Positions 26,802 to 28,319 of a stretch of DNA of 64,000 bases are shown in pieces. This DNA comes from Oryzias latipes (taxonomy: Eukaryota; Chordata; Actinopteri; Beloniformes; Adrianichthyidae). Position 1 is the first letter of the stretch. The number at the start of each line of letters is the position of its first letter. A program made the position numbers and the translations under genes. The notes below the pieces were generated by a model. That model was not told where the DNA came from. It saw nothing but the letters and a program-made list of their open reading frames with translations, and did no database searches. The stretch is from NCBI RefSeq assembly GCF_002234675.1, contig NC_019864.2:11363582-11427581 (forward strand), in the 5' to 3' direction.

Positions 26802-27778
26802 CCCGAGACTAGATGGCCTTTAGCCCCGCAGTAAAAACAGGCTCCAGCTTCGCGTCTTTTGCGCCGTTCCTCTTCTGACAGCCTTGAGTGGCCGATCTGC
26901 ATGGGTTCCTCCATAGTCTTGGAGGGGACAGCATACAGGCCTGGATCGATCGGTGGAGCGTGGATAGACTTAGTCGGGGAACGTGGAGCCGGATGACCTC
27001 GTTCTTTTTGGCGCTCACGTATCCTAACGTCCGACCGGAGAGCGGCGGACACTAACTCCTCAAAGGATCGTGCTTCCGGTTGAGAACAAAGGTGGTCTTT
27101 AATTTGTTCGTTCAAGGACTGGTAAAAAACGCCTTTGAGAGCCACATCGGGCCAGCCAGCTTCAACCGCTAGAATGCGGAAATCGATTACGTGATCGCTA
27201 ACAGCACGGTTCCGCTGTTTGAGTGCGAGCAGCCGCCGGGTTGCCTCTTCCTGTTTACGAGGTTGGTCGAATATCAGGCGGAATTCGCCGAGGAATCGCT
27301 CGTAAGACAGGTGAGAGATAGGATTGGCAGAGAGATAAGCTTGGGCCCACTGGAGAGCTTTACTTCGTAGAGAATTAATGACAAGGGTGATCTTACTGTG
27401 GTCGGACTGGTAGAATCGGGGAGCTTGTTGACATATTAACTGGCACTGCAGCAAAAATCCTCCGCAGGCCTCCACCTCCCCGAAGAAAGGTTCCGGTTGG
27501 AGTCGGATGTTTTCGGTTGCGGACGGCACTCCGGAAGCGGAAGGAGCTGGGACGACAGGAGTATGGACTGTGGCAGGCGAAACCTGGGAAAACTGGCTGG
27601 TTAGTTCATGTAAGGTCTGGGTCATACCATCTAGGCGATGAAAGAGATCCTGCTGGGCAGCCGCCATTTGCGACAGAGCGTCCGCTTGACGTCCCAGCAT
27701 AATGCCTTGTTGGGAAACGGCTAATCTGAGTCCTTCTGGGTCAGCTGGGTTGGGATTAAGGCCAGTCCGTTCTGTCAT
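26765..27778 (-). CDS. gag: Gypsy Gag polyprotein
   Basis: A 337-codon open frame. The N-terminal part has a coiled-coil-like stretch (about 20-70), then a capsid region about 95-265 with FLGEFRLIFDQP and ALKQRNRAVSDHVIDF. A single CCHC zinc knuckle, CFYCGAKGHLVSGC, lies near the C-terminus and would bind the packaged RNA. It forms the particle in which reverse transcription occurs. The first ATG (27778-27776) lies inside the last bases of the 5' LTR, so the primer site would be codons 3-6 of gag if this start is used. A later Met near codon 27 is an alternative. It ends at TAG 26767-26765, overlapping pol. Confidence 0.93.
   Translation of the reverse strand: MTERTGLNPNPADPEGLRLAVSQQGIMLGRQADALSQMAAAQQDLFHRLDGMTQTLHELTSQFSQVSPATVHTPVVPAPSASGVPSATENIRLQPEPFFGEVEACGGFLLQCQLICQQAPRFYQSDHSKITLVINSLRSKALQWAQAYLSANPISHLSYERFLGEFRLIFDQPRKQEEATRRLLALKQRNRAVSDHVIDFRILAVEAGWPDVALKGVFYQSLNEQIKDHLCSQPEARSFEELVSAALRSDVRIRERQKERGHPAPRSPTKSIHAPPIDPGLYAVPSKTMEEPMQIGHSRLSEEERRKRREAGACFYCGAKGHLVSGCPVRLNFPAPR
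27761..27771 (-). promoter_or_regulatory. Primer binding site, self-priming type
   Basis: One base in from the 5' LTR, the transcript reads AACGGACTGGC. It is perfectly complementary (11 of 11) to GCCAGTCCGTT inside the LTR (transcript 28192 down to 28182), which would be the start of R. This matches the Tf1/sushi mechanism, in which the mRNA 5' end folds back, is cut and primes minus-strand synthesis in place of a tRNA. The site does not begin with the TGG expected of most tRNA-primed sites. Confidence 0.82.
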
Positions 27779-28319
27779 GGCTACAGAACACTTTTCTAAC
27801 CCAGATGCTGGAACCCAGAAGAAACACAGCGGGAGGCGAGCGTTGGCGGGTAAGAGTTTTTAATACGAGGAGCAGAGAGCAGAACGTGAGCAGGTCCAGA
27901 TGTCGGTTCCGAACTGAAAGACAGAAGCTAGCGGCGTCACTGGTGGATTTCTCTGTAGGCCGATGTTGACGACGGTGGAGACACTTGATGAGGCAGAGGC
28001 TCGTGGTGGGACCGCAGGAGAGGACAGACTGATGAGAGCGGCTGGGAACTGATTCGAGCGACCACTCGTGGAACTGGATTCCTGAGGGTGAGTAGAGAGA
28101 GAGACAGGTTTAGTCACAGGCTTGACGTAGCGAAAACGAACAATAGCTTGACTTGACGACCAACTATGCACCATCAGGGGCAACGGACTGGCGAAGACTG
28201 ATGATCCTGTGGCTCCTTATGAAGGCGGATGAGGTGATGAGGTAAGTGGTCGCAGGTGTAGAGAATCAGCAGCCAAGCGGAGAGGAGAGGGGGAGGAGGC
28301 CGACAGAGGCACCATGTCA
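27773..28319 (-). repeat. Gypsy 5' LTR (right copy, promoter-bearing)
   Basis: 547 bp. Transcription would run right to left. CATAAGG (28221 down to 28215) is a TATA-like box about 25-30 nt before the predicted start at about 28192, where the self-primer sequence begins. U5 then runs to 27773. The spacing agrees with a transcript that starts at the self-primer. Confidence 0.93.

What the first reader, a model, noticed from the sequence alone, without database searches (positions are those of the whole stretch)
27761..28192. Self-priming site: 11-base match between primer site and presumed mRNA 5' end
The sequence one base after the 5' LTR (AACGGACTGGC in the transcript) is perfectly complementary to GCCAGTCCGTT in the LTR, 25-30 nt after a TATA-like CATAAGG. 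This is the Tf1/sushi self-priming layout, in which the mRNA 5' end replaces a tRNA. An 11/11 match at both predicted positions is unlikely by chance.
Basis: partly seen in the sequence, partly recalled or inferred. Interest (0 to 1): 0.75.

Follow-up and report, generated by a model that had tools for sequence, protein, structure and literature searches.

The report
Medaka retrotransposon that primes itself
A jumping gene of the medaka fish carries a short landing site that matches the predicted start of its own messenger RNA, as expected if it starts copying itself without a borrowed tRNA; dozens of related copies keep the match while the letters change, and the letter just past the site is nearly always C, possibly a trace of the RNA cap.

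Summary
Observation confirmed. The minus strand holds a chromodomain Ty3/gypsy retrotransposon with Tf1/sushi features (LTRs 27773-28319 and 22890-23436, TSD GTACT). The 11 nt beginning one base past the LTR (27771-27761) are exactly complementary to 28192-28182, 29 nt after the start of CATAAGG. I read 81 LTR/PBS junctions (the window and 80 other genomic places): 64 pair 11/11 and ten more 10/10; eight primer/PBS types recur, with two-sided Watson-Crick changes at seven of eleven positions. This strongly supports self-priming, a mechanism already known for this group: a new member of a known kind.

The base after the 11-nt match is C in 80 of 81 junctions, although the LTR base that would face it is C or T, never G (80 read). 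In 71 gag proteins, codon 7 has the smallest share of first-base changes among 137 variable columns; base 12 is also C in 19 of 19 copies with the PBS before gag. I suggest, without proof, that it records copying of the primer's m7G cap. RNA folding gave no support; no transcript data were available.

The parts
27773..28319 (-). 5' LTR, 547 bp, TG...CA
   Evidence: differs from the 3' LTR at 1 of 547 positions (window 27797)
22890..23436 (-). 3' LTR, 547 bp
22885..22889 (.). target site duplication GTACT
   Evidence: read directly
28320..28324 (.). target site duplication GTACT
   Evidence: read directly
28215..28221 (-). TATA-like box CATAAGG, starts 29 nt before the predicted mRNA start
   Evidence: a TATA-like motif (list of eight drawn up from the data) starts 27-31 nt before +1 in 80 of 81 places
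28182..28192 (-). self-primer: predicted first 11 nt of the mRNA, GCCAGTCCGTT
   Evidence: covariation; start site not measured
23299..23309 (-). second copy of the self-primer, in the 3' LTR
27761..27771 (-). primer binding site AACGGACTGGC, also gag codons 3 (part) to 6
27760..27760 (-). base 12 after the PBS, C, first base of gag codon 7; proposed cap footprint
   Evidence: C in 80 of 81 junctions; for gag proteins
26765..27778 (-). gag (337 aa); its ATG lies in the last six bases of the LTR
   Evidence: PF19259, PF03732
26783..26789 (-). TTTAAAC heptamer in the gag frame, candidate -1 frameshift site
23469..26819 (-). pol open frame: protease, RT, RNase H, integrase, Tf2-1-like SH3, chromodomain
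   Evidence: scanned in two pieces
23440..23450 (-). polypurine tract GGAGGGGGGGG, 3 nt before the 3' LTR
   Evidence: read directly
27859..27864 (-). ATTAAA, candidate polyadenylation signal in the LTR

Best explanation
This is a young LTR retrotransposon of medaka, of the Tf1/sushi kind, that starts reverse transcription from its own mRNA. The mRNA is predicted to start at 28192. Its first 11 nt pair with the primer binding site just past the LTR; by analogy with Tf1, RNase H then cuts after nt 11 and the fragment primes minus-strand DNA. Shown here: the anatomy, the exact pairing, and its covariation across families. Inferred: start site, cleavage, priming. A further inference with lower confidence (see the section on the most novel reading): plus-strand strong-stop DNA copies the primer to its capped end, so a C opposite the cap is written at, or required at, base 12.
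For: Exact 11/11 pairing at 27771-27761 and 28192-28182. 81 of 81 junctions read: 64 pair 11/11 (44 of the 60 picked by gag alone), eight primer/PBS types recur, two-sided Watson-Crick changes at +2, +3, +4, +6, +7, +8, +9; paired fraction over 14 types 0.935 against a mean of 0.766 when PBSs are shuffled among primers, 0 of 10000 shuffles reaching it. In 80 of 81 a TATA-like motif starts 27-31 nt upstream; in these +1 is G (80 of 80) and -1 is C or T. Chromodomain and Tf2-1-like SH3 domain, -1 frameshift heptamer. The Tf1 mechanism (first 11 bases, cut between 11 and 12) is described in PMC7175516 (passages); the group's self-priming in PMC10085805 and PMC6317226 (passages). A contig labelled bacterial, probably eukaryotic contamination (L012), shows a similar layout.
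Against: No transcript data. ViennaRNA does not favour the duplex in the real leaders: 10 of 20 distinct leaders lack it in the minimum-energy fold, and in 17 of 20 its probability is below the mean of leaders with a shuffled middle. Extra helices like those of the Tf1 'pretzel' were weak. The families share ancestry, so the 14 types are not independent. Of 81 junctions, 10 pair over 10 rather than 11 nt and 7 have other mismatches or no primer. A passage of PMC2864245 reports a related Tcn1-like element with no sign of self-priming.
Confidence: 0.92

Rival explanations
1. A host tRNA (3' end or internal fragment) primes reverse transcription and the LTR match is coincidence.
For: Most LTR retrotransposons use tRNAs (general knowledge). 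No fish tRNA set was available here for a direct comparison.
Against: The first TGG after the LTR starts at base 9. The PBS changes together with the LTR primer in eight recurring types, which a fixed tRNA would not cause.
Confidence: 0.02
2. The pairing is real but serves another step, such as translation control or packaging, and not priming.
For: The PBS overlaps the gag start region, so a duplex of the mRNA 5' end with the PBS could also affect translation.
Against: The site sits right after the LTR end, where the first DNA must start, in the junctions I read; in 19 copies the PBS lies before gag, and 17 of these keep the pairing over 10 or 11 nt.
Confidence: 0.05
3. The nearly fixed C at base 12 is only inherited sequence or is needed for an unknown local function, not a cap footprint.
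For: Base 13 is also mostly A (73 of 81), so the neighbourhood is rather conserved; the copies share ancestry; the test was devised after seeing the pattern. In contig L012 the base after an 11-nt primer would be G; only with a 12-nt primer is the next base C.
Against: In gag, codon 7 shows 1 first-base against 13 second-base and 14 third-base changes; it has the lowest first-base share of 137 variable columns, median 0.55. C also in 19 of 19 copies with the PBS before gag.
Confidence: 0.55
4. The primer is 12 nt long and base 12 pairs with an mRNA starting one base further upstream.
For: Would explain a fixed base 12.
Against: The LTR base at -1 is C in 69 and T in 11 of 80 junctions, never G.
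Confidence: 0.02

Closest known systems
Tf1 of Schizosaccharomyces pombe
   Same: First 11 nt of the mRNA complementary to a PBS just after the LTR; chromodomain chromovirus (passages of PMC7175516, PMC10085805)
   Different: Tf1 has a single open frame and needs a three-duplex leader (passages); here gag and pol are in two frames with a TTTAAAC heptamer, gag starts inside the LTR so the PBS is coding, and I found no convincing three-duplex leader
sushi-ichi of pufferfish and the vertebrate Tf1/sushi elements (Butler et al. 2001, paper not held)
   Same: Vertebrate host; self-priming and -1 frameshift of the group as cited in passages of PMC6317226 and PMC10085805
   Different: No sequence of sushi-ichi was available for comparison, so the position of its gag start and its base 12 are unknown to me
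Tj1 of Schizosaccharomyces japonicus
   Same: PBS complementary to the mRNA 5' end, proposed self-priming (PMC4600332 passages)

Membership tests
Tf1/sushi group of chromoviruses | Ty3/gypsy gene order PR-RT-RH-IN with a C-terminal chromodomain | tested here: met
   RVT_1, RT_RNaseH, Integrase_H2C2, rve, SH3_Tf2-1 and Chromo above Pfam cut-offs; the protease only at the cut-off (24.3 bits)
Tf1/sushi group of chromoviruses | PBS complementary to the 5' end of its own transcript, over about 11 nt | tested here: met
   the transcript end itself is inferred
Tf1/sushi group of chromoviruses | -1 frameshift between gag and pol, predominant in members outside fission yeast (PMC10085805) | tested here: met
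   TTTAAAC in the gag frame, pol in the -1 frame; use not shown
Tf1/sushi group of chromoviruses | three-duplex 'pretzel' leader | tested here: inconclusive
   weak extra helices; single-sequence folding favours the central duplex less than in shuffled leaders
Tf1/sushi group of chromoviruses | RT-integrase tree placement inside the group | not tested
   no named Tf1/sushi pol sequences were in the tools
Tf1/sushi group of chromoviruses | RNase H cut after nt 11 of the mRNA | not testable with these tools
   needs RNA or DNA from cells
tRNA-primed LTR retrotransposons | PBS beginning with TGG, complementary to a tRNA 3' end | tested here: not met
   GAACGGAC after the LTR, first TGG at base 9; comparison with fish tRNAs not made

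The most novel reading that the evidence does not exclude
The base after the PBS of these self-primed elements is a footprint of the mRNA cap. The primer is the capped 5' end of the mRNA; plus-strand strong-stop DNA copies it to its end and adds C opposite the m7G cap. Base 12 is thus rewritten as C each round, or must be C for the second strand transfer to extend. The genome would then carry a base templated by a cap, and the exact transcription start of each family could be read from its DNA. MMLV reverse transcriptase using the cap as a template for C is reported in PMC6885630 (passages).
Probability: 0.4. Interest if true: 0.8.

Novelty: new member of a known kind. Interest (0 to 1): 0.5.

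Why it matters
Self-priming was worked out in fission yeast; the main paper on vertebrate members was not held, so I cannot say how much was shown there. The many medaka copies give a natural covariation test of the pairing and a precise prediction of the mRNA start. The nearly fixed C after the PBS, if it records the cap, would be a DNA-level trace of how a self-primer is copied, and would bear on what ends plus-strand strong-stop DNA where there is no tRNA primer.

Tried and rejected
RNA folding as evidence: the duplex appears in the window leader, but leaders with a shuffled middle pair better in 17 of 20, so folding was dropped as support. Pretzel helices by search: weak. Reading primer letters from proteins that run through the LTR by degenerate matching: not significant against shuffles; replaced by genomic DNA. 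Relatives in viral contigs: RT piece and gag profile gave none; a 17-base pattern gave 11 stretches that I took for chance and did not open. Prokaryote collection: gag profile none, RT piece 6 loci that look like eukaryotic contamination; two more contigs of one of these assemblies showed no readable PBS. The human gene PEG10, whose N-terminus I recall as resembling the PBS-encoded peptide, could not be checked and is not used.

The base-12 test was devised after I saw the residue pattern, so its rank among columns is descriptive. Of 239 database proteins 72 had MTE in the first 200 residues; two were dropped (P0206, a chance MTE; P0152, a deletion), the window's gag was added (71), and two (P0116, P0148) were read with one extra residue taken out. 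The 20 places were picked, out of 100 listed and 289 counted, for an exact primer with a second one some kb away, so they are no evidence for pairing. The 60 others were picked by me for variety from the 119 and 121 rows, which are themselves lower bounds. In one search the primer was sought with a bonus for a TATA-like motif from a list made after seeing the data.

Full report
What is there. On the minus strand lies an LTR retrotransposon: 5' LTR 27773-28319 and 3' LTR 22890-23436, 547 bp each, differing at one position, flanked by GTACT on both sides. Gag (27778-26765) and pol (to 23469) are open. Pfam finds Ty3-type capsid, RT, RNase H, integrase, Tf2-1-like SH3 and chromodomain above the cut-offs and a protease at the cut-off. 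A TTTAAAC heptamer lies in register for a -1 shift from gag to pol.

The observation. One base after the LTR stands AACGGACTGGC (27771-27761). Its exact complement, GCCAGTCCGTT, stands at 28192-28182, 29 nt after the start of CATAAGG. The flanking bases do not pair. In 5000 dinucleotide shuffles of the LTR, 9 had an 11-nt complement to a stretch starting 0-5 nt after the LTR.

Gag starts inside the LTR. The last six LTR bases are ATGACA, so the PBS is also gag codons 3 to 6 (M-T-E-R-T-G). Of 239 related database proteins, 35 contain MTERTG in the first 200 residues and 72 contain MTE; poeciliid and killifish members have MTEHSG and similar, and many others begin further on, at MDPAD or MDSAD.

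Covariation. I read the LTR/PBS junction at 81 places: the window; 20 picked, from the 100 listed of 289 exact primer matches, as 5' members of pairs; and 60 picked for variety from the 119 and 121 gag matches (fetched, with longer pieces for nine). All 81 could be read. The match is 11/11 in 64, has one mismatch in 14 and two in 2, and no recognisable primer was found in 1 (L063). Among the 60 gag-picked places the figures are 44, 13, 2 and 1; ten of the 13 belong to families that pair over 10 nt and differ at position 11. Eight primer/PBS types recur, and both sides change together at +2, +3, +4, +6, +7, +8 and +9. Over the 14 types, 0.935 of positions pair, against a mean of 0.766 when PBSs are dealt out anew among primers; none of 10000 shuffles reached it. 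In 80 of 81 a TATA-like motif starts 27-31 nt before the primer; in these +1 is G in 80 and -1 is C (69) or T (11). Reduced to 47 distinct combinations of upstream 30 nt, primer and PBS, -1 is C in 40 and T in 7.

Mechanism. [quoted passage not shown] group: PMC10085805 and PMC6317226, passages). The start site, the cut and the priming are inferred here. Covariation can arise by selection, or because the PBS of a new copy is written from the primer; these data do not separate the two.

Folding. The window leader pairs primer and PBS in its minimum-energy fold (10 of 11 pairs). This is not evidence: with the middle shuffled (20 mononucleotide shuffles each), the duplex is likelier in 17 of 20 distinct leaders, and 10 of 20 real leaders lack it in the predicted fold. 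A search for the two further Tf1-like helices gave weak candidates.

Base 12. The base after the 11-nt match is C in 80 of 81 junctions (46 of 47 distinct combinations); the exception (L099, G) has also lost its gag ATG and has a PBS mismatch. It would face -1 in the LTR, which is never G in the 80 read, so it is not part of the duplex. In 19 places of families whose gag ATG follows the PBS (L066-L079, L081-L085; the ATG itself was seen in 18, L083 goes by its family), base 12 is C in 19 of 19. In MTE-type gag proteins it is the first base of codon 7: residues Q, H, P, L or R, all with CNN codons, in 70 of 71 proteins, the exception being E. On a tree of the 71, codon 7 needs 1 first-base, 13 second-base and 14 third-base changes; of 137 columns with at least 10 first- plus second-base changes (192 tested) it has the lowest first-base share (0.07, median 0.55).

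A reading of base 12. The primer carries the mRNA cap at its far end. When plus-strand strong-stop DNA copies the primer, an RT that adds C opposite the cap would end in C at base 12; MMLV RT is reported to use the cap as a template for C (PMC6885630, passages). Base 12 would be rewritten as C, or have to be C so that the transferred strand can extend. Against it: base 13 is also mostly A (73 of 81), the families share ancestry, the test is post hoc, and in contig L012 the primer length, and with it the verdict, is ambiguous (G after 11 nt, C after 12). [quoted passage not shown] My literature searches listed no paper that I recognised as describing this; I saw listings and passages only, and the key papers (Levin 1995; Lin and Levin 1997; Butler 2001) were not held. 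So absence from print is not shown.

Verdict. The mechanism is known; the element is a new member of a known kind.

Noticed in passing
G000:C5:31184753-31199401: Four primer copies about 4.88 kb apart on one strand, as in a tandem array of LTR-internal units sharing LTRs.
   Followed up: no
G000:C13:7748962, C8:8222542, C15:4028506 and others: Relatives whose gag lies in open frames of 1443-1553 aa, so gag and pol may be fused in one frame without a frameshift.
   Followed up: no
L012-L017: Ty3/gypsy-like contigs in assemblies labelled as bacteria, probably eukaryotic contamination; L012 shows a TATA, a 12-nt primer-like match and a PBS-like site after TGACA.
   Followed up: partly
window 28082-28110 (-): A pyrimidine run ending in ACCCTCAG in the leader looks like a 3' splice site; a few gag relatives carry names of host-gene isoforms (P0002, P0118).
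   Followed up: no
window 21982-22222: Short tandem arrays of 21-22 bp units near the 3' LTR.
   Followed up: no
window 20843-21107 and 40938-41202: 265-nt inverted repeat, 94% complementary, 19.8 kb apart, one arm on each side of the element.
   Followed up: no
window 20096-20641 (+): Open frame with a weak reverse transcriptase match, below the Pfam cut-off.
   Followed up: no
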